In this document: in pieces, positions 2-8,387 of the stretch | Numbering within the stretch: position 1 is the stretch's first letter | Layout of the letters: the number at the start of each line of letters is the position of its first letter | Origin: an uncultured Prevotellaceae bacterium | GTDB taxonomy: Bacteria; Bacteroidota; Bacteroidia; Bacteroidales; Bacteroidaceae | Assembly (NCBI GenBank): GCA_902775075.1 | Contig: CACYKX010000140.1 | Coordinates: 1-8,387 of the forward strand | Length of the DNA: 8,387 bases | Direction of reading: 5' to 3' | Program-made: the position numbers and the translations under genes | Notes under the pieces: generated by a model | Database searches by the model: none | Told to the model about the DNA's origin: nothing | What the model saw: the letters and a program-made list of their open reading frames with translations, nothing else

Positions 2-82
2 AAGTTCAAGCTGCCATCCGACATGAAAGGCATAGGCCAGAACTATATGTTAGGCCGTTTTGATGCTATTCCTAAAATATAG
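2..82 (+). CDS. RloA-like AAA ATPase, C-terminal end only
   Basis: An open frame enters from the left edge and ends at TAG 80-82, giving the last 26 codons of a protein. The tail contains the segment YMLGRFDAIPKI. A C-terminal 'GRFxAIP' ending is typical, as I recall it, of RloA/AAA_15-type ATPases, which pair with RloB. The following gene is RloB-like and starts one base after this stop, which strongly supports the pairing and suggests translational coupling in one operon. RloA proteins are SMC/ABC-like ATPases, thought to be the sensing or motor subunit of a phage-defence pair. The Walker motifs would lie outside the window, so ATPase identity rests on this short tail plus the neighbour. 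The 5' end is missing because of the window edge. Confidence 0.7.
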   Translation, partial: KFKLPSDMKGIGQNYMLGRFDAIPKI

Positions 83-83
83 C

Positions 84-707
84 ATGATGGAAAAGCTAAA
101 TTTGGATTTCGTTACGATTCCAGGGAAAGATGCTTATGAATCAGGAAGCACCCCTGTCCGTGATTTATTCTTCATTGCAATCATAGCTGAAGGAAAGGAA
201 GAGTGTATCTATCTGGATTATATTAAGAGCATCGTTAATGAGGCAACCACCGTAAAGCTAAACATAGAAATACTCAATCATTACTACAACAAAGAGAAAA
301 CCGCACTGAGCGAATCTCATCCATTGAAACGCCTTGATGCTCTAAAAGAATGGAGTGATGCTATTCAGAAAATATCACTAACAGATGATGAGGAATGGAT
401 AATTTGCGATCGTGATAACGGCTCTTTTACAAATGATCAATATGATGAGTTGCTTGCGGATGCTGAGACTTTGGGTATTCATGTCATTGTTTCCAATCCA
501 GCCTTCCAGATATGGTTGTTGTTTCATTTCGTTAAGGATATAACTCCATTGCGGCTTGATGACTATCCAAAGAGCAAGGATAGATTAAAGATAGTGGAGA
601 GCGAGCTGAAAAAATATGTGGATGGATATAAACATGGATCTTTGGAGATTGACGCTTTCTCAGAACATATCAGAGATGCCATGGACAATAGTCAATCTAC
701 GACATAA
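84..707 (+). CDS. rloB: RloB-family protein (Toprim-like nuclease partner), probably C-terminally truncated
   Basis: I start at ATG 84, one base after the upstream stop. ATG 87 is equally possible, while a longer TTG start at 60 would overlap the upstream gene. The product is 207 residues. Family landmarks are an 'AEG' motif (residues 35-37) after a hydrophobic strand, the acidic 'CDRD' (108-111), and the signature SNPAFQIWLLFHF (137-149), equivalent to the usual SNPxFExWLLxHF. RloB proteins are Toprim-like predicted nucleases that act with the ATPase RloA; the lactococcal AbiL abortive-infection pair is built the same way. Two oddities suggest decay. The usually acidic position in 'FExW' is Q142. 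The frame also stops at TAA 705-707, although in-frame codons beyond it (to TAA 801-803) encode the expected end, with a 'GTN' motif. No promoter is visible, so it should be cotranscribed with the upstream gene. Family call firm; activity doubtful. Confidence 0.85.
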   Translation: MMEKLNLDFVTIPGKDAYESGSTPVRDLFFIAIIAEGKEECIYLDYIKSIVNEATTVKLNIEILNHYYNKEKTALSESHPLKRLDALKEWSDAIQKISLTDDEEWIICDRDNGSFTNDQYDELLADAETLGIHVIVSNPAFQIWLLFHFVKDITPLRLDDYPKSKDRLKIVESELKKYVDGYKHGSLEIDAFSEHIRDAMDNSQSTT

Positions 708-803: not shown

Positions 804-871
804 CATCGTAGGGATGATGGCATGAAGAAAAAAGCAGTCAGTGGAAGTATTGTAAACGTCTTATTTTCCGC

Positions 872-903
872 CTTGACACCGGCACATAAAAATATTACCT
901 TTG
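872..903 (+). promoter_or_regulatory. Bacteroidetes-type promoter of the relic tnpA
   Basis: CTTG at 872-875, a 20-bp spacer, and TACCTTTG at 896-903 fit the Bacteroidetes -33/-7 consensus (TTTG / TAnnTTTG). It still points at the broken tnpA and could start outward transcripts towards the downstream sequence. Confidence 0.6.
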
Positions 904-930
904 CGGCATCAACTTTAAAACAGAAAAGTT

Positions 931-1050
931 ATGCCAAAAGAAAAAGTCAATTATTAGGAAGTCTACAATCTGTATCAGCTGTGCAGTGAGACTAAGAATC
1001 TGAAGGAGTTCTGCTCCGAGTATGGTGTCAACTATGACAAGTTTATGAAC
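931..1050 (+). pseudogene. tnpA: Broken tnpA of the IS66 relic
   Basis: ATG 931 starts MPKEKVNY and is then stopped by TAG at 955-957, where both other copies have CAG (Gln). After this the frame continues as EVYNLYQLCSETKNLKEF and onward, recognisably the N-terminal helix-turn-helix region of IS66 TnpA, until about 1050 where similarity ends. It carries a nonsense codon and is truncated, so it cannot give a working protein. Several differences from the 8205 copy are G-to-A or C-to-T, consistent with simple decay. Confidence 0.85.
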
Positions 1051-1264
1051 ACAAACTGGAACTTGCATTTAAAGTCCAGAGCTAACTCCCGATCTGATTA
1101 AAGTGCGACGGGAGCGACAGTCCAAGACAATACTCAGCAAAGAAACCTATGACAAGCGGCAATTGCTGCCCTGTTATATCATAATATAGGTTAAACTTGG
1201 AAAAACATTTTTTTTGCGTAATCCACATAACCGGCTGAAAAACTATTCAGCCATTCCCATCGTA
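1051..1264. other. Intergenic DNA with no recognised gene
   Basis: This follows the point where the IS66 relic loses similarity. No frame is long enough to support a gene. One + strand frame (about 1079-1189) ends in QLLPCYIII and faintly recalls the LLPCYY end of TnpC; I treat this as weak. A perfect inverted repeat, GGCTGAA/TTCAGCC with a 6-base loop, lies at 1233-1252. It has no T-run on either side, so it is not a convincing terminator. Confidence 0.5.
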
Positions 1265-1292
1265 GTTAGGGCGGGTTTATCCCAGCCCTAAC
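1265..1292. repeat. REP-like palindrome, copy 1
   Basis: GTTAGGGC (1265-1272) pairs perfectly with GCCCTAAC (1285-1292). An inner GGG/CCC and the loop TTTAT sit between them, with one bulged A at 1284. A related palindrome with the same loop and the same right arm occurs at 5001-5027, just after the upxY-like gene. Two related palindromes in non-coding positions fit a dispersed REP-type repeat family. There is no downstream T-run, so a terminator role is not supported. Confidence 0.6.
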
Positions 1293-1387: not shown

Positions 1388-1407
1388 GTAAACGTTCTAT
1401 TTTCCGC

Positions 1408-1439
1408 CTTGACACGAACCTCAATATCTAGTACCTTTG
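1408..1439 (+). promoter_or_regulatory. tnpA promoter inside the IS66 left end
   Basis: CTTG at 1408-1411, a 20-bp spacer and TACCTTTG at 1432-1439 fit the Bacteroidetes -33/-7 pattern. The same arrangement is conserved in the other two IS66 left ends of the window (872-903 and 8225-8256), which supports its being functional. It lies 28 bases before tnpA. Confidence 0.7.
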
Positions 1440-1466
1440 TGGCATCGAATCTTAAATTTCAAGATC

Positions 1467-1835
1467 ATGCCAAAGAAAGAAGTGAATTATCAGGAGGTGT
1501 ACGACCTCTACCAACTCTGCAGTGAGACGAAGGAACTGAAGGAGTTCTGCAATGAGATGGGAGTGAACTACGAGAAGTTTATGAACTGGCAGCGCCATCA
1601 GCTATGGGACGAGAAGATGGGCAAGACGGTGAGCGTGGAGCAGCCGTCAACGGCACCGGTGAGGATCGTCGGCACGCCGAGCAACCAGCCGACGGTGAAA
1701 ATGGAGCAGGTGAAACCTGCCAAGCCGGAGCCCATCAAGTGGGTGAAGCTGCAGCTGACCGGTGGTGCCACCATCTTCCTGAGAAATACGAACGTGTTGG
1801 ACCTGAGCCTGATGCTCAACAAACTCATTGGATGA
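1467..1835 (+). CDS. tnpA: IS66 accessory protein TnpA
   Basis: The protein is 122 residues, starting at ATG 1467. The relic at 931 and the partial copy at 8284 have their ATG at the equivalent place, which fixes this start over the upstream TTG. The first ~45 residues (MPKKEVNYQEVYDLYQLC onward) form a predicted helix-turn-helix. A Pro/Gln-rich linker follows, and the C-terminus LTGGATIFLRNTN...LMLNKLIG is the conserved beta-rich end of IS66 TnpA proteins. TnpA is needed with TnpB and TnpC for IS66 transposition and probably binds DNA. Its stop codon is followed after one base by the tnpB start, implying coupled translation. Confidence 0.92.
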   Translation: MPKKEVNYQEVYDLYQLCSETKELKEFCNEMGVNYEKFMNWQRHQLWDEKMGKTVSVEQPSTAPVRIVGTPSNQPTVKMEQVKPAKPEPIKWVKLQLTGGATIFLRNTNVLDLSLMLNKLIG

Positions 1836-1836
1836 C

Positions 1837-2193
1837 ATGCTGGGACTGAGTGCAAACCTTGACTACTACCTGTTCAACGGCAACGTTGACATGAGGAAAG
1901 GGATCTTCCGCCTGTGCGAGTACATCCGCGAGGAGCTGAAGAAGGATCCGAGTGATACGAAGAGCGTCTACATGTTCATGGCCAGGAGCCGTAAGATGAT
2001 CAAGCTGCTGCATTATGAGCACGGTTTCTATGTCCTGTACGAGAAACGGCCAGTAACGGGAAAATTCAAAAAGCCCGTATTTGACGAGATCTCGCGCTGC
2101 TACCAAATTTCGTGGTCGGACATGGCTTATCTCACTGAGAGCCTCGTAATCGACCGTATGGCCCTAACGGACAGGGCTCCTGACCGAACATAA
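1837..2193 (+). CDS. tnpB: IS66 accessory protein TnpB
   Basis: I start at ATG 1837, one base after the tnpA stop, giving 118 residues. An in-frame TTG at 1828 would overlap tnpA and add nothing conserved. The N-terminal segment YLFNGNVDMRKGIFRLCEYI corresponds to the conserved 'Y.....DMRKG...L' hallmark of the IS66 Orf2/TnpB family. The rest, including VYMFMARSRKMIKLLHYEHGF and the following YEKR, matches the family pattern 'vFvFrnRrrdriKlL.wd..GF.l..KRLe'. TnpB is required for transposition; its biochemical role is not established. This protein is unrelated to the RNA-guided TnpB nucleases of IS200/IS605. A gap of about 70 bases separates it from tnpC. Confidence 0.92.
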   Translation: MLGLSANLDYYLFNGNVDMRKGIFRLCEYIREELKKDPSDTKSVYMFMARSRKMIKLLHYEHGFYVLYEKRPVTGKFKKPVFDEISRCYQISWSDMAYLTESLVIDRMALTDRAPDRT

Positions 2194-2227
2194 TGTTCTG
2201 ATTATCAATAAAATAAATTGGAAAAAG

Positions 2228-2259
2228 CTTGCATAATCCGAATATTTTTCGTACCTTTA
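2228..2259 (+). promoter_or_regulatory. Possible second IS66 promoter ahead of tnpC
   Basis: CTTG at 2228-2231, a 20-bp spacer and TACCTTTA at 2252-2259 resemble the element's own tnpA promoter, with one mismatch in the -7 box. Transcription would begin at or just at the tnpC ATG (2264), giving an almost leaderless message, so the call is tentative. Confidence 0.4.
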
Positions 2260-2263
2260 CATC

Positions 2264-4048
2264 ATGCAAGACGAGCGGATGTACGAATTATTACGGTCGA
2301 TGCTGGCGTTCTACAAGGAGGAGAGCGCCAGCAAGAGCAAGCAAATAGAGAAGTTGCTTGCAGAGCTTGCGTCTGTCCGCGAGAATCACTCTCAGGAGGT
2401 CTCTGCCCTCAACGACACCATACGTGAGCTCCAGGAGCAGATAAAGGCCCTTGACAGCAAAATGGCCAGCTTGCAGATGGCGTTAGATACACTTCGCGTG
2501 ACCGTCACGCATCAGAACGCGATGCTGGAAGGCAAAGACAAGCAGATCCTTAACCTCCAGAATGAGGTCCTCAACCTCCGTGGTCACCGCTTCGGCCGCA
2601 CAACCGAGCAGCAGGCTCTGCTGAACAACCGCAAGCCCGCAGATGACGCAGAGGCCAGGAAAGAGGCTTATGACGGCACGGCGGACAGCGTGAAGGACAA
2701 AGACGGCGACAATGGTGATCAGCCCACGGCAGGCGCAGCATCGGCCACGTCTGGTCCTCAGAAGCGCTCCCGCAGGAAGGAGACCGATAAGCGTGCTCCC
2801 AAACAAGGCTGCCATGTGGACGAGACCAAAGTCATCGAGGTGGATGAGTACTACAAGCTTCCTCCCGGCGCATACTTCATGAAAGACAAGGACGGCAACA
2901 TCGATTACATCTGCTACACGGTCATCGAGCATATCAAGGCCCGGAACGTGCGGTACATCTACAAGGTCGCCCGTGTGCATATGCCCGACGGCAGCTTCGT
3001 CTATACGAAGGACATGCCGAACAAGAACCTTGGCTGCATCTTCTCCCCAAGCCTCCTGGCCATGGTACTCTGCTGGAAGTACGCATACCACCTTCCCGTC
3101 AACAGAGTGAAGCGCCTGCTCCGCGACCAGGGCATCTCCATCAGCAAGAGCACGCTGAACCGCTATGTGCAGAATGGCATGAAGCTCATCCGCGACTTTA
3201 TGGAAAAGCCCTTCAAACGGGAAGTACAGTCCACCCACTACATGATGGTAGACGAGACCACGGAGCTCGTCGGCGTCCAGGACGGTGACAAGGTGAGCTA
3301 CAAGAAGAAATACCTCTGGGCGTTCTTCGCCACGATGAAGCGGATGGTGTTCTACCTCTACGACAAAGGCAGCCGCGCCCGCAGGGTGGCCCTCGACTTC
3401 CTGGAGAAGTTCAGCGGATATGTCTCTACCGACGGCTATACTGCCTACAGCATCTTCGACGATGCGAAGAAGTACCCCAATATCGTCCACATCGGATGCT
3501 GGGTGCACGCCCGAAGGAAATGGATAGATGCCTTGCCTACCGACCGCCGGGCGATGGACATGATCAACGACATCGCCGAGCTCTTCAAGAATGAGATAAG
3601 CTTCAAGCTCCTTAAACTGAAGCCCTTCGAGATAGAAGACCGACGGGAACGACGCTCGAAGCCCATCCTGAAAAGAATCCACGACAGGGCTGTGCTGATG
3701 AAATCAAACCTGATGCTCATGGCAAATGACAAGATGCGGAACGCCGTTGACTACCTGCTCAACCAGTGGAAATCACTGGAGAACTTCATCAAGTCAGGAT
3801 TGGTCGAAATCTCCAACAACCTCTGCGAGCAACGGATGAAGCCCATCAAGCTCAACCTGAAAAACTGCCAGAACGTCGGAAGTGAAGATGCAGCCGAGAA
3901 TGCCGCCTTCATGTTCTCCGTCACAGAGAGCTGCCGGCTCAACAACATCAATCCGGTGAACTATCTGGAGATGATCTTCACCAAGATCCGCGACGGAGAG
4001 ACCGCCACCCAAGCACTTTTGCCTTGCTACTACAAGGAGAAATGTTAA
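2264..4048 (+). CDS. tnpC: IS66 transposase TnpC (DDE family)
   Basis: This is a 594-residue DDE transposase. Residues ~20-105 are heptad-rich and predicted coiled coil. Residues ~125-180 form a charged, low-complexity linker ending in a basic patch (KRSRRKETDKR). The catalytic domain follows, with the probable triad D330 (MMVDETT), D390 (STDGYTAY) and E522 (SNNLCEQRMKP), plus the family motif GCWVHARRKW (411-420). The C-terminal segment NAAFMFSVTESCRLNNINP is the usual IS66 C-terminal domain. The CxxC zinc-finger found in many IS66 TnpC proteins before the catalytic domain is not evident, as far as I can see. It catalyses strand cleavage and joining during transposition. The length is normal and no frameshift is visible, so it is probably functional. 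Confidence 0.96.
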   Translation: MQDERMYELLRSMLAFYKEESASKSKQIEKLLAELASVRENHSQEVSALNDTIRELQEQIKALDSKMASLQMALDTLRVTVTHQNAMLEGKDKQILNLQNEVLNLRGHRFGRTTEQQALLNNRKPADDAEARKEAYDGTADSVKDKDGDNGDQPTAGAASATSGPQKRSRRKETDKRAPKQGCHVDETKVIEVDEYYKLPPGAYFMKDKDGNIDYICYTVIEHIKARNVRYIYKVARVHMPDGSFVYTKDMPNKNLGCIFSPSLLAMVLCWKYAYHLPVNRVKRLLRDQGISISKSTLNRYVQNGMKLIRDFMEKPFKREVQSTHYMMVDETTELVGVQDGDKVSYKKKYLWAFFATMKRMVFYLYDKGSRARRVALDFLEKFSGYVSTDGYTAYSIFDDAKKYPNIVHIGCWVHARRKWIDALPTDRRAMDMINDIAELFKNEISFKLLKLKPFEIEDRRERRSKPILKRIHDRAVLMKSNLMLMANDKMRNAVDYLLNQWKSLENFIKSGLVEISNNLCEQRMKPIKLNLKNCQNVGSEDAAENAAFMFSVTESCRLNNINPVNYLEMIFTKIRDGETATQALLPCYYKEKC

Positions 4049-4082
4049 ATCAGAAAAAGTTTATTGCCTCCCTCATCACTGC

Positions 4083-4104
4083 AACCGCCTTATACAAGGC
4101 GGTT
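4083..4104 (+). terminator. Stem-loop after tnpC
   Basis: AACCGCCTT (4083-4091) and AAGGCGGTT (4096-4104) form a perfect 9-bp stem with the loop ATAC, 34 bases after the tnpC stop. There is no T-run after it, so it may be a 3' stability hairpin or a weak terminator. If weak, IS transcripts could read into the upxY-like leader. Confidence 0.5.
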
Positions 4105-4137
4105 AAAGTGGGTGTGGGCGGGAAATAGAACGTTTAC

Positions 4138-4419: not shown

Positions 4420-4423
4420 ATGA
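4331..4423 (+). CDS. 30-codon ORF overlapping the upxY-like start (ATGA)
   Basis: ATG 4331 opens a 30-residue frame whose TGA (4421-4423) overlaps the ATG of the next gene (4420-4422) as ATGA, the classic arrangement for translational coupling. The peptide starts MEDFTFHPGIFII and is mildly hydrophobic near the start, with no signal peptide or known domain. The frame is closed upstream by TAA 4310-4312, so this start is the only ATG available. It could be a regulatory leader peptide, the remnant of a former longer gene, or chance. I do not recognise it. Confidence 0.4.
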   Translation: MEDFTFHPGIFIIRTEALLGFESRENALNR

Positions 4424-4989
4424 TACAAGAAGCCGATAACAACTCTACCTGGGGATATATCTACCGTCATCCGTTGAAAGTAGCCCGATTCCCTGCTGAG
4501 ATGGACTCTGTCTTGGCAGAAGCCCGTGTCAGTCCGGATGCCGTCTTCGTTCCGCATTACTTCATCCATAAGACCATCAGGGCGGTCAAGAAGCACACGA
4601 CCGTGCGCGAAGTGGAGGAGATCACACCGATAGGCTTCATCTTCCTTCATGGCACCACCGCTCAGCTACGCCAGTTCCTGACAGACTATTTCCCACAGGA
4701 TCATCTGATCAATAATCCCCTCACTGGCGTTCCTGCGGAGATTCCCAACAGTCAGATGAATCCCTTCATGCAACTCATCAACAAGCAGCCCGAGCGCATC
4801 AAACCGCTCGACAATCCCATCAGCTATTTCAAGCAGCACCCACATATCCGCATCACCTCCGGCCTCCTTGAAGGCTTGGAAGGATACGTCGTCAGAGTCA
4901 GTGGTAGCCGCAGCCTCGTCATCGACATCGCCGGCCGCTCTTTCGCCATCAAGGATATACTCAGAGAAGCATGGGAGACTGTCGAATAA
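4420..4989 (+). CDS. UpxY-like NusG-family transcription antiterminator
   Basis: The protein is 189 residues. Residues ~11-90 look like a NusG N-terminal (NGN) domain: it opens WGYIYRHPLK, has a central 'VFVPHYFIHK' strand, and ends with PIGFIFLHG, the counterpart of 'PGYVFV'. Residues ~143-180 form a KOW domain (RITSGLLEGLEGYVVRV onward). The order and length fit the specialised NusG paralogues of Bacteroidales, typified by UpxY of Bacteroides fragilis capsule loci, which bind elongating RNA polymerase and prevent premature termination in the leader of their own operon. An in-frame TAG about seven codons upstream leaves ATG 4420 as the only reasonable start; it overlaps the stop of a 30-codon ORF. 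Its promoter is now 3 kb away because of the IS66 insertion, so expression may depend on IS read-through. No upxZ-like gene follows. Confidence 0.8.
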   Translation: MIQEADNNSTWGYIYRHPLKVARFPAEMDSVLAEARVSPDAVFVPHYFIHKTIRAVKKHTTVREVEEITPIGFIFLHGTTAQLRQFLTDYFPQDHLINNPLTGVPAEIPNSQMNPFMQLINKQPERIKPLDNPISYFKQHPHIRITSGLLEGLEGYVVRVSGSRSLVIDIAGRSFAIKDILREAWETVE

Positions 4990-4993
4990 TCTC

Positions 4994-5030
4994 CCCCTCG
5001 TAGGGGCGGAGGTTTATCCCCGCCCTAACC
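4994..5030. repeat. REP-like palindrome, copy 2
   Basis: TAGGGGCGG (5001-5009) pairs with CCGCCCTA (5020-5027) with one bulge. An inner GG/CC and the loop TTTAT match the palindrome at 1265-1292, and the right arm GCCCTAAC is identical. The preceding CCCCT (4994-4998) can instead pair with AGGGG (5002-5006), so two mutually exclusive hairpins are possible. It begins about 5 bases after the upxY-like stop. No T-run follows. Confidence 0.6.
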
Positions 5031-5235
5031 CTCTTGTCTAAAATATTCCTCACACAAACTCACAGAGCACTCTACCCGTAAGAAATCTCACACAGATTTC
5101 ACCCTAAGAACGATAATAAAATAACTTTTTTCAAAAACAGATACGTGTAACTACTTGTAAAATAGTGGGGACGCTGTATTGGTGATATACAATAATCGGG
5201 CAATTTGTTTCATGTAACTGATAAAAATAAATATT
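5031..5235. other. Intergenic region before the HD-GHKL gene
   Basis: This A+T-rich spacer contains a perfect hairpin, GAAATCT/AGATTTC with a CACAC loop, at 5082-5100. I looked for the Bacteroidetes -33/-7 promoter and found no good match. The nearest candidate, CTTG at 5154-5157 followed about 19 bases later by TATTGGTG, is poor. The start region ATAAAAATAAATATTATGG is A-rich, as is usual for Bacteroidetes translation starts, and has no Shine-Dalgarno sequence. Confidence 0.45.
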
Positions 5236-7851
5236 ATGGATAAATATGAATTGACAACTTTATGGCAAAATACATTGGGCTTGAAAAATCAAACTAATGG
5301 TTATCAAGAACAAGTAGATTTTTTGCGACAAGCATATTATTCATTAAGGCAAAAGGCACAGCTTTTTGCTTCAGAAATAAATCGAAGCTTACCCTCATTT
5401 ACAATACATGATATATCACATGCTGATGCTTTGTGGGGGATTGCCTCAATGATACTTTCCTCTAATGAAAATCTAAATCCAGCGGAAGGGTTTGTTTTGG
5501 GTGCTGCTTTCTTGGTTCATGACTTGGGAATGGGAATCGTTGCTTATCAAGAGGGCATCGAAGAGTTGAAGAAAACAGCATTGTGGCAGGATACCTATAA
5601 AGCATTGGAACGCAAGACTCTAGGATCTTTAGAGAAAAAAGATTTAGAGCAATGGGCTTTAGAGTCAACCCTAAGAGATTTGCATGCGCAAAAAGCAGAG
5701 TCGTTACCACTGGCTTCTTGGAAAAATAATATGGGCAACCAGATGTTTTTATTGGAGGATTCCGATTTGAGAAACTCTTATGGAGACATCATTGGAAAAA
5801 TAGCGGCAAGTCATGGAACTACGATTGATAGAATGATGCACCTATTAGGTACGGATTTGATAGGTGCTCCAGGATTTTTACCTTCACATTGGACGATAGA
5901 CCCGATAAAATTAGGTTGTTTGATGCGTGCTGTTGATGCAATTGATGTAGATGACAGCAGAGCACCAAGTCTCCTCTTTACTTTAAGAAAACCAAGTGGA
6001 ATTTCAAAAGAACATTGGACATTCCAAAATAAGTTGAATCAGCCTACAGTAAAAGGAAGCAGAATACTATTTACTTCAAAATCTCCTTTTGGTATAGAGG
6101 AAAGTGACAGTTGGTGGCTTTGCTTTGATACATTGCGCATGATAGATAGCGAACTGAAAAGTGTTGATTCTTTCTTGTCTGACTTAGGAAGAACCACATT
6201 TGGTGTCAATGGTGTTGCTTACATAGATACCCCATCTCGCCTTACTGAGTCTGTAAAGGTCGTTGGTTGGAAGCCAGTAGATACCACGATTAATGTTTCA
6301 AATGTTCCCAAGCTAGTGGCTACGTTGGGAGGCAAGGAGTTATATGGTAAAAATTATAAAGTTCCGTTGAGAGAATTAATACAAAATGCCTCAGATGCAA
6401 TACGGGCAAGAAGAATATTGGATGATGATGATTCTTTTGATGGAAAAATCCGAGTTAAGTTTGGAGAAGATGCTAATGGCACGTATATCGAAATTTCGGA
6501 TAATGGAGTAGGCATGTCTTCTTTGGTTATGACTCAATCTTTGTTGGATTTTGGTCAATCTTTTTGGGGAACAAATCTTATGCATAAAGAGTTTCCTCTG
6601 TTGGAAGCAAAAGGTTATAGTTCAACAGGAAAGTATGGAATAGGCTTCTTCTCTGTATTTATGCTTGGATCTAAAGTGCAGGTTATATCACGTAAATACT
6701 TGTTGGGTAGGGAGCAGACACATGTGTTGGATTTTATGCATGGACTCGACTCCAGGCCAATCCTACGTTGTGCAAATCCTGATGAATATATAAAGGATGG
6801 TGGCACTATAGTTCGAGTTTGGATAGGAAAAGATATAAAGAAAAGTCTTCTTTATGATAGTTTTTTGGAAAAGCAGATTCCACTTTCTGAAATATTGGAA
6901 CGATTGTGTCCAAGCCTTGATTGTAATCTTTATGTTGAGTCTGAAACAACGCCAGTCATATCACGCAATGATTGGATAACTATGGACTCTAAGGAGTTAC
7001 TGTTAAGAATACATGGAAAGTCTAGATGTGCGGTAGCCAATGATCAACAATCAAAATTGTTAGAGTTATTGGCGAAAAATATGAGGACAGTTACGGATTC
7101 AAAAGGCCAAATTGTAGCAAGAGCTTCTTTATATTTAGATAAGGGTTACCATTTTCATGGGCATTTGGATTTATGTGAAGGTATGATTACGATAGGAGGT
7201 CTAAATGCTGGTGTTATTCGTGGTATCGTTGGAATCGTTAAGGGATATAGTATTAATGCATCTCGAAATTATGGTATGCCGATAGTTTCTTATGCGGAAA
7301 TATCCAAATGGGCAACAGAACAGTCTCAGTTGTTGGCTGATTCGTGGTTGGATGGTAATATACAAATGCATTGTGCAACAATAGTCCATCAGTTAGGGGG
7401 ATGTACCGGTGACTTGAAATGTTTTGAATACCGAGGTGGCTATATCTCTTGTAATGAATTGGTTTCTTATATCAAAAATGAGAACATAGATGAATGTATC
7501 TTATTATCAGATGCAGCTGTATCTGTAGAGTTTAGGCGTAGAAACGACAATCGTGTGTTTATAGCAAATCCAAATGTGTTTTGGGGAGAAGCTGGTATTG
7601 TTTCAATATTATGTAATGTATTGGATTTTGAATATTCCTTGAGATGGCCAAATAGGGAAAGAGCATTAGAGGTATCGATGTCAAATTTGTTTATTGCAAA
7701 ATTAGCGGAAGCATGGGATACTGATGTTGATACTGTAAAAGCATATGCAAAAATCTCTACAGACGATGTGAAATATAATGCGGTTATTGGTACCTTTGGT
7801 GATCAAGATGCTAATTATGATTTTGCTGATATTTTTAAAAGACCAAATTAA
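5236..7851 (+). CDS. Large HD-domain / Hsp90-like GHKL ATPase fusion protein
   Basis: This is an 871-residue protein. Residues ~50-250 look like an HD-type hydrolase or HD-derived domain: IHDISHAD (57-64), FLVHDLGMG (92-100), SHGT (192-195) and AVDAIDVDD (232-240) supply the expected spaced His/Asp residues. Residues ~350-530 are a GHKL ATPase resembling Hsp90: N-box LRELIQNASDAIRAR (378-392, with E380 and N384), ATP-binding DNGVGM (422-427), and glycine-rich lid STGKYGIGFFSVFMLGSKV (463-481). The remaining ~340 residues have no domain I recognise. There is no signal peptide or membrane segment, so it should be cytoplasmic. Fusions of an HD-like domain to Hsp90-like ATPases are known to me from predicted NTP-dependent conflict systems. 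The cellular role is not established here. The gene is visibly A+T-rich compared with upxY and the IS genes, and sits between upxY and a flippase remnant, suggesting horizontal arrival. Confidence 0.85.
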   Translation: MDKYELTTLWQNTLGLKNQTNGYQEQVDFLRQAYYSLRQKAQLFASEINRSLPSFTIHDISHADALWGIASMILSSNENLNPAEGFVLGAAFLVHDLGMGIVAYQEGIEELKKTALWQDTYKALERKTLGSLEKKDLEQWALESTLRDLHAQKAESLPLASWKNNMGNQMFLLEDSDLRNSYGDIIGKIAASHGTTIDRMMHLLGTDLIGAPGFLPSHWTIDPIKLGCLMRAVDAIDVDDSRAPSLLFTLRKPSGISKEHWTFQNKLNQPTVKGSRILFTSKSPFGIEESDSWWLCFDTLRMIDSELKSVDSFLSDLGRTTFGVNGVAYIDTPSRLTESVKVVGWKPVDTTINVSNVPKLVATLGGKELYGKNYKVPLRELIQNASDAIRARRILDDDDSFDGKIRVKFGEDANGTYIEISDNGVGMSSLVMTQSLLDFGQSFWGTNLMHKEFPLLEAKGYSSTGKYGIGFFSVFMLGSKVQVISRKYLLGREQTHVLDFMHGLDSRPILRCANPDEYIKDGGTIVRVWIGKDIKKSLLYDSFLEKQIPLSEILERLCPSLDCNLYVESETTPVISRNDWITMDSKELLLRIHGKSRCAVANDQQSKLLELLAKNMRTVTDSKGQIVARASLYLDKGYHFHGHLDLCEGMITIGGLNAGVIRGIVGIVKGYSINASRNYGMPIVSYAEISKWATEQSQLLADSWLDGNIQMHCATIVHQLGGCTGDLKCFEYRGGYISCNELVSYIKNENIDECILLSDAAVSVEFRRRNDNRVFIANPNVFWGEAGIVSILCNVLDFEYSLRWPNRERALEVSMSNLFIAKLAEAWDTDVDTVKAYAKISTDDVKYNAVIGTFGDQDANYDFADIFKRPN

Positions 7852-7871
7852 GTTAAACAGAGTATAGCATT

Positions 7872-7965
7872 ATGTCCTCTCAATCAGATAAAAACAAGCG
7901 AATAGTGAAGAATACTTACTTCTCTACTTCCGTATGCTGTTCTTGATGTTTGATTGTAGTTTATA
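7872..7965 (+). pseudogene. 5' remnant of a polysaccharide flippase (Wzx-type)
   Basis: ATG 7872 begins MSSQSDKNKRIVKNT, the characteristic start of Bacteroidales O-antigen/capsule flippases (MATE/PST-type membrane exporters). The next expected residues, LYFRMLFLMF, are present from 7923 but one frame over. Restoring one T near 7915-7918 would join the two frames. Similarity to the expected 'VSLYTSRVVL' continuation fades after about 7952, so the gene is both frameshifted and truncated to its first ~30 codons of a normally ~450-500-codon gene. It starts 20 bases after the HD-GHKL stop. It identifies the surroundings as a former surface-polysaccharide locus. The family comparison is from memory of the conserved N-terminus. 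Confidence 0.68.
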
Positions 7966-8008
7966 AGGCAATATTTTTAGTAGGAATGTTGAACTGACTG
8001 AGAATATT

Positions 8009-8194
8009 ATGACGGAACATCTATATAACGAATTGCTGAAAGCCTACACAAAGGAAGCTTTTGCAAATATGATAAAGGCAGATATACGACAAAGGTTCCC
8101 TGAACCTTACGCCAGTATGTATTGCCAGCAGTTTGATAATTTCAAGAATGTTGCAGATTTCTTTGAATTTTCAGCAAAGTTAATAAGGAGATAA
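8009..8194 (+). CDS. Hypothetical 61-residue protein
   Basis: A short ORF from ATG 8009 to TAA 8192-8194. The product has a mixed charged and aromatic composition, is probably helical, and has no signal peptide or membrane segment. I do not recognise it. It lies between the flippase remnant and the third IS66 left end; its last base overlaps the start of a palindrome at 8194-8212. It could be a small real gene, or the remainder of a larger gene lost with the flippase. Coding status is uncertain because of length. Confidence 0.4.
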   Translation: MTEHLYNELLKAYTKEAFANMIKADIRQRFPEPYASMYCQQFDNFKNVADFFEFSAKLIRR

Positions 8195-8224
8195 CGTTTA
8201 TGAAGTAAACGTCTTATTTTCCAC

Positions 8225-8256
8225 CTTGACACCGGCACATAAAAATATTACCTTTG
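8225..8256 (+). promoter_or_regulatory. tnpA promoter of the third IS66 element
   Basis: CTTG at 8225-8228, a 20-bp spacer and TACCTTTG at 8249-8256; identical in layout to the promoters in the other two IS66 left ends. Confidence 0.62.
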
Positions 8257-8283
8257 CGGCATCAACTTTAAAACAGAAAAGTT

Positions 8284-8387
8284 ATGCTGAAAGAAAAAGT
8301 CAATTATCAGGAAGTCTACGATCTGTATCAGCTGTGCAGTGAGACTAAGGATCTGAAGGAGTTCTGCTCCGAGTATGGTGTCAACTA
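8284..8387 (+). CDS. tnpA: IS66 TnpA, N-terminal part (cut by window edge)
   Basis: ATG 8284 begins MLKEKVNYQEVYDLYQLCSE and runs open to the window end (34 full codons). It is the N-terminal helix-turn-helix region of IS66 TnpA, closely similar to residues 1-34 of the intact TnpA at 1467. The Gln codon that became a stop in the relic at 955 is intact here. The second residue is Leu rather than Pro, because of two substitutions next to the start. Confidence 0.88.
   Translation, partial: MLKEKVNYQEVYDLYQLCSETKDLKEFCSEYGVN

What the first reader, a model, noticed from the sequence alone, without database searches (positions are those of the whole stretch)
5236..7851. HD domain fused to an Hsp90-like GHKL ATPase: candidate single-gene conflict system
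One cytoplasmic 871-residue protein carries spaced HD-type His/Asp motifs, then a GHKL fold with a very Hsp90-like N-box (LRELIQNASDAIRAR) and lid (GKYGIGFFSVF), then ~340 unassigned residues. The combination suggests an ATP-gated sensor or remodeller controlling an HD-type effector, or nucleotide signalling. It is A+T-rich against its neighbours and sits as cargo in a polysaccharide locus near an RloAB pair. Seen: motifs and context. Inferred: a defence role. The C-terminal third could hold an unrecognised effector or sensor.
Basis: partly seen in the sequence, partly recalled or inferred. Interest (0 to 1): 0.75.

Follow-up and report, generated by a model that had tools for sequence, protein, structure and literature searches.

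The report
Hsp90-like ATPase with HD enzyme
A bacterial gene makes one protein that joins a nucleotide-cutting (HD) enzyme to an Hsp90-like ATP-driven clamp; it belongs to a widespread, patchily spread family that probably works as a single-gene immune switch, a kind already predicted but for which no bench test was found.

The parts
5236..7851 (+). HD-CE / Hsp90-like fusion gene, 871 aa
5389..6159 (+). HD-CE domain (residues 52-308); motif H58xxxH62, H95-D96, H150, H193, D234
   Evidence: Pfam E 6.7e-51; conservation; model pLDDT 94.9 with HD-superfamily matches
6292..6735 (+). Hsp90-type GHKL ATPase domain (about residues 353-500): E380, N384, D387, D422-x-G424-x-G426, G468/G470
   Evidence: residues kept in 51/51 or 52/52 aligned loci (the loci were found partly through a pattern covering N384 and D387)
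6736..7776 (+). Hsp90 middle-domain-like region (about residues 501-847), with R677 kept in 47/47 loci aligned there
4420..4989 (+). UpxY-like transcription antiterminator, ending 246 bp upstream on the same strand
   Evidence: NCBIfam 58.3 bits, below cut-off 100
1388..4137 (+). IS66-family element (TnpA-like, TnpB, TnpC) with terminal inverted repeats and flanking 9-bp direct repeat
852..1068 (+). truncated left end of a second IS66-like element
8205..8387 (+). left end of a further IS66-like element running off the window, 96.7% identical to the copy at 852 over 183 nt
60..707 (+). RloB-like gene (AbiLii model in PADLOC, E 1.4e-10)

Best explanation
It is a single-gene immune (conflict) protein of the HD-CE/Hsp90 class. 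SHOWN: an N-terminal HD-superfamily domain with a complete, conserved metal-binding motif, fused to an Hsp90-type GHKL ATPase with complete ATP-site motifs, and then a region that models as the Hsp90 middle domain. INFERRED: the protein dimerises through its Hsp90-like part; a phage- or invader-derived client, or another sign of infection, is captured by the clamp; the ATP-driven cycle (E380 as catalytic base, N384 for magnesium, R677 possibly as the Hsp90-type middle-domain arginine) moves the N-terminal HD domains into an active arrangement; the HD site then hydrolyses nucleotides (NTPs, dNTPs or a related phosphate ester) and starves replication or halts the cell. The Hsp90 part would do the job that STAND ATPases do in other immune proteins. 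The gene probably travels as mobile cargo, here between IS66-family ends.
Confidence: 0.5

Rival explanations
1. The HD domain is a phosphodiesterase for a signalling nucleotide (cyclic or ppGpp-like) and the Hsp90 part senses stress; the protein tunes signalling rather than killing or starving.
For: Best Foldseek hit and most VIA rows of the HD model are cyclic-nucleotide phosphodiesterases; the H58xxxH62 spacing with H95-D96 and D234 resembles the class I phosphodiesterase site (recalled, not tested).
Against: No neighbour gene family recurs widely, so no constant synthetase partner is evident; fold similarity does not fix the substrate.
Confidence: 0.15
2. A specialised chaperone or remodeller of a cellular process, with HD as a regulatory or structural part (housekeeping or stress role).
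For: Hsp90-like N plus middle architecture with conserved ATPase residues; many loci have ordinary neighbours.
Against: Patchy distribution, no HD-CE in 14 of 14 control genomes, presence on a plasmid and predicted viral contigs; 10 of 11 genomes tested also have a PF00183 (Hsp90) match; HD metal residues are conserved as in an enzyme.
Confidence: 0.1
3. A mobile-element function: the gene serves its plasmid, prophage or transposon (exclusion of rivals, maintenance) rather than the host.
For: IS66 ends on both sides of the gene; a plasmid copy; 6 IMG/VR contigs carry relatives.
Against: No neighbour family, hence no element type, recurs in more than 8 of 52 loci; no match in 50,697 phage records.
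Confidence: 0.13
4. The HD domain is a nuclease acting on nucleic acid (Cas3-like), licensed by the Hsp90 clamp.
Against: Best HD matches here are nucleotide and polyphosphate enzymes; Pfam shows no DNA-binding domain in the protein.
Confidence: 0.1

Closest known systems
Pfam PF24391 HD-CE family with HSP90-like module (Nicastro, Burroughs, Iyer and Aravind, NAR 2023, doi 10.1093/nar/gkad879; paper not held, content recalled, title seen in reference lists only)
   Same: Same HD domain family (tested) and same fusion with an Hsp90/GHKL ATPase; predicted nucleotide-targeting immune effector (recalled).
   Different: Nothing found that sets the window protein apart; here the middle-domain-like region and motif residues are described for this subfamily.
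VcSduA, type I-D Shedu with GHKL ATPase (PMC12137116, section 12 read)
   Same: One gene; GHKL ATPase with clamp-like middle domain coupled to an enzymatic effector; shown to be anti-phage.
   Different: Effector is a C-terminal PD-(D/E)xK nuclease (DUF4263), not an N-terminal HD; no DUF4263 match in the window protein.
HtpG / Hsp90 chaperone
   Same: N-domain homologous (hhalign probability 99, E 5.5e-18); model superposes on N plus middle domains.
   Different: Far below the HtpG equivalog cut-off (62.4 against 371 bits); extra N-terminal HD domain; no clear Hsp90 C-terminal dimerisation domain.
CloA of the Clover system (PMC12265719, passages seen) and SAMHD1/dGTPase-type HD dNTPases
   Same: HD-domain enzyme acting on nucleotides in anti-phage defence; a dGTPase is second in the Foldseek list (E 0.24).
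   Different: CloA has a C-terminal helical bundle and an accessory NTase; no GHKL part is described in the passages seen.

Membership tests
HD-CE (PF24391) | Profile score over the curated cut-off | tested here: met
   173.9 bits against 27, profile positions 1-262 of 263
HD-CE (PF24391) | Intact HD metal motif | tested here: met
   H62, H95, D96, D234 present; kept in 44, 44, 46 and 46 of 46 sequences. Which residues bind metal is inferred from the HD superfamily.
HD-CE / HSP90-module immune class (recalled from Nicastro et al. 2023) | HD-CE fused to Hsp90-like GHKL ATPase | tested here: met
   25 of 26 HD-CE ORFs examined show it
HD-CE / HSP90-module immune class (recalled from Nicastro et al. 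2023) | Association with defence genes | tested here: inconclusive
   clear single cases but no significant enrichment; PADLOC listings truncated and defence models also in controls
HD-CE / HSP90-module immune class (recalled from Nicastro et al. 2023) | Anti-phage activity and nucleotide degradation | not testable with these tools
   needs bench work
HtpG/Hsp90 chaperone | Score over HtpG equivalog cut-off | tested here: not met
   62.4 against 371 bits
HtpG/Hsp90 chaperone | Hsp90 N-domain ATP site | tested here: met
   E380, N384, D422, G424, G426, G468, G470 present and invariant in A1 and the aligned loci; hhalign E 5.5e-18
HtpG/Hsp90 chaperone | Middle domain with catalytic arginine | tested here: inconclusive
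HtpG/Hsp90 chaperone | C-terminal dimerisation domain | tested here: inconclusive
   only about 70 residues lie beyond residue 800; longest superpositions end at model residues 826-863
Shedu (type I-D, VcSduA) | DUF4263 nuclease domain | tested here: not met
   no such match among Pfam families at E 1 or better
Known PADLOC defence systems | Strong match to a defence model | tested here: not met
   only five weak TmtA models in the GHKL region, best 5e-5 over residues 378-485 (PADLOC-DB of 2023)

The most novel reading that the evidence does not exclude
An Hsp90-type chaperone clamp has been turned into an immune receptor: invader proteins are captured as clients, and the ATP-driven closing of the clamp, not the binding of a nucleic acid or second messenger, switches on an N-terminal HD nucleotide hydrolase, all in one gene found in bacteria and archaea.
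Probability: 0.3. Interest if true: 0.8.

Novelty: new member of a known kind. Interest (0 to 1): 0.42.

Why it matters
If the reading is right, Hsp90, known as a folding machine, was also recruited by bacteria and archaea as the switch of an immune protein. It would give the nucleotide-depletion type of defence a new trigger and make 'chaperone as sensor' directly testable with a few point mutants and a phage panel. Close relatives are numerous: one cluster represented by a 98% identical protein stands for 783 sequences.

Tried and rejected
Middle domain by sequence: hhalign of residues 501-871 or 605-800 against ten HtpG sequences gave probability 1-2; kept as a structure-only claim. Conserved partner gene: rejected, no neighbour family in more than 8 of 52 loci (flanks of some loci are short and ORFs under 80 aa were not compared). 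Sequence match of the HD domain to solved structures: none at E 10. Rfam families at the gathering score and tRNAs in the window: none. Promoter-like sites in 4900-8387: 15 found against 12.4 expected, so no weight. Defence enrichment by PADLOC in 252 near genes of 23 loci and 250 control genes of the same 23 genomes: listings stop at 25 families for three of the four sets (53, 95 and 55 families; the fourth, 13, is complete). Near hits shown include LmuA, PDC-S05, PDC-S23 (these three at L001), Avs1a, WYL, RTasMBL, a type I MTase and specificity subunit, PDC-S04, mad2, mad3 and mad8; control hits shown include UvrD-type GajB/RTasHel, IetA, NsnA, PDC-S37, viperin, MkoA, mad2 and mad3. No rate can be given. 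Controls were one 20-kb stretch per genome, placed by hand, not random draws. The other 29 loci were not scanned with PADLOC (their 131 neighbour genes were listed but not sent). Integrase proximity: listing truncated, not used. Literature: searches gave no bench test of HD-CE/Hsp90 proteins in their listings; the held library lacks the key paper and most subscription journals. Passages of PMC13092281 and PMC8195603 added nothing on this fusion.

Full report
WHAT IS THERE. The ORF is exact: 5236-7851 (+), 871 aa. Pfam gives HD-CE over residues 52-308 (E 6.7e-51) and HATPase_c_3 over 378-487 (E 3.7e-7). Solved-structure and NCBIfam searches place the ATPase nearest to Hsp90; profile comparison with ten HtpG-like sequences taken from relatives' genomes gives probability 99, E 5.5e-18 over 240 columns, residues about 351-614.

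HOW COMMON. The protein search found 818 homologues at E 0.001 or better among the 7993 candidates scored (120 listed, most of them full length). Genome contigs gave 52 loci; by the record titles they include Bacteroidota, Bacillota, Pseudomonadota, Actinomycetota, Acidobacteriota, Chloroflexota and archaea. Within the family of the Segatella copri genome 2 of 301 genomes have a match at E 1e-60, one of them that genome itself. HD-CE itself gives a match in 50 of 395 genomes of that phylum (23 with 45 bits or more; the rest are weak and near the cut-off) and in 16 of 398 of the phylum of a Pseudomonas genome; 0 of 14 named controls. Architecture was examined in 24 loci (L005, L091-L113: the best-scoring HD-CE loci of two searches and four picked by me; L096 and L103 repeat L001 and L019). 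They hold 26 HD-CE ORFs; 25 show a GHKL domain, 24 by a home-made profile and one (L110) by Pfam at 25.1 bits against 25; the exception is a 1214-aa ORF in L113, not scanned with Pfam. The fusion is therefore the usual state of HD-CE proteins in this sample.

SETTING. In the window an IS66-family element (1388-4137) is bounded by inverted repeats and a 9-bp direct repeat; left ends of a further IS66-like sequence lie at 852 and 8205, 96.7% identical over 183 nt and in the same direction. The HD-CE gene and a UpxY-like antiterminator lie between them. No neighbour gene family recurs in more than 8 of 52 loci. The most similar genome-contig relative (S. copri, L001, 58% identical) is followed by a RhuM/PDC-S05 gene at 2.3 kb, a strong LmuA at 3.5 kb (256.6 bits; the other three LmuA matches in 23 genomes have 43-51 bits), a trypsin-like gene with a sub-cut-off CTD4 match and a 1033-aa gene with a sub-cut-off AAA_15 match, which together look like a Lamassu/ABC-three-component cluster. 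A Zymomonas plasmid copy (31% identical) is followed at about 1 kb by a TIR-domain gene. Clostridium uliginosum has three HD-CE genes within 11.5 kb. Six IMG/VR contigs carry relatives; no phage record in the INPHARED set does; 5 records of the plasmid set do, two of them over about 80% or more of the query, one of these an 11.9-Mb replicon, the other three over 13-25% only. Against this: neighbours of the 23 loci tested are a mixture of mobile, defence and ordinary genes, LmuA, PDC-S05 and PDC-S23 come from L001 alone, control stretches also give defence models, and DNA N6-methylase genes lie within 20 kb at 2 of 23 loci against 0.43 expected (P 0.07).

MECHANISM. Shown: a complete HD motif and a complete Hsp90-type ATP site in one chain. 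Inferred: clamp closure switches the HD enzyme, the substrate is a nucleotide, the trigger is an infection-linked client, the outcome is defence. The nearest tested precedent is VcSduA, where one protein joins a GHKL ATPase with a clamp-like middle domain to a nuclease and both E27A and K557A abolish protection (PMC12137116, section 12 read). DnaJ-dependent phage sensing by bNACHT25 (PMC12169576, search listing only) shows that chaperone logic in phage sensing is not far-fetched.

KNOWN OR NEW. Pfam's HD-CE entry shows the domain is curated. From memory, Nicastro et al. (NAR 2023) named HD-CE as a nucleotide-targeting effector and described systems using HSP90-related modules as analogues of STAND domains; I could not read it and saw only its title in the reference lists of three papers. 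On that footing this is a new member of a known, predicted kind. The searches listed no bench test.

Noticed in passing
window 1388-4137: IS66-family element with 21-nt inverted repeats (95%) and flanking 9-bp direct repeats; its G+C (0.526) differs from the surrounding 0.38.
   Followed up: yes
window 852-1068 and 8205-8387: Left ends of another IS66-like element, same direction, 96.7% identical over 183 nt, on either side of the HD-CE gene; the first is truncated.
   Followed up: partly
window 1274-1292 and 5011-5029: 19-nt direct repeat (95%) in intergenic DNA, the second copy just after the UpxY-like gene.
   Followed up: no
window 8009-8194: 61-codon ORF downstream of the gene; 75% identical over 48 aa to a piece of L001 (5747-5890), also downstream of the HD-CE gene there.
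   Followed up: partly
L005 6740-18254: Three HD-CE/GHKL genes (815, 879, 1302 aa) within 11.5 kb in Clostridium uliginosum; the first also matches iHD-CE (PF24401).
   Followed up: partly
G017 C1:273766-276652 (genome of L041): A second family copy in Methylobacter tundripaludum lies about 0.6 kb from one of several 305-aa integrase-family genes with the same or nearly the same score.
   Followed up: no
model m1b4d3316485a: Phage RIIA proteins are among the best viral structural matches of the full-length model.
   Followed up: no
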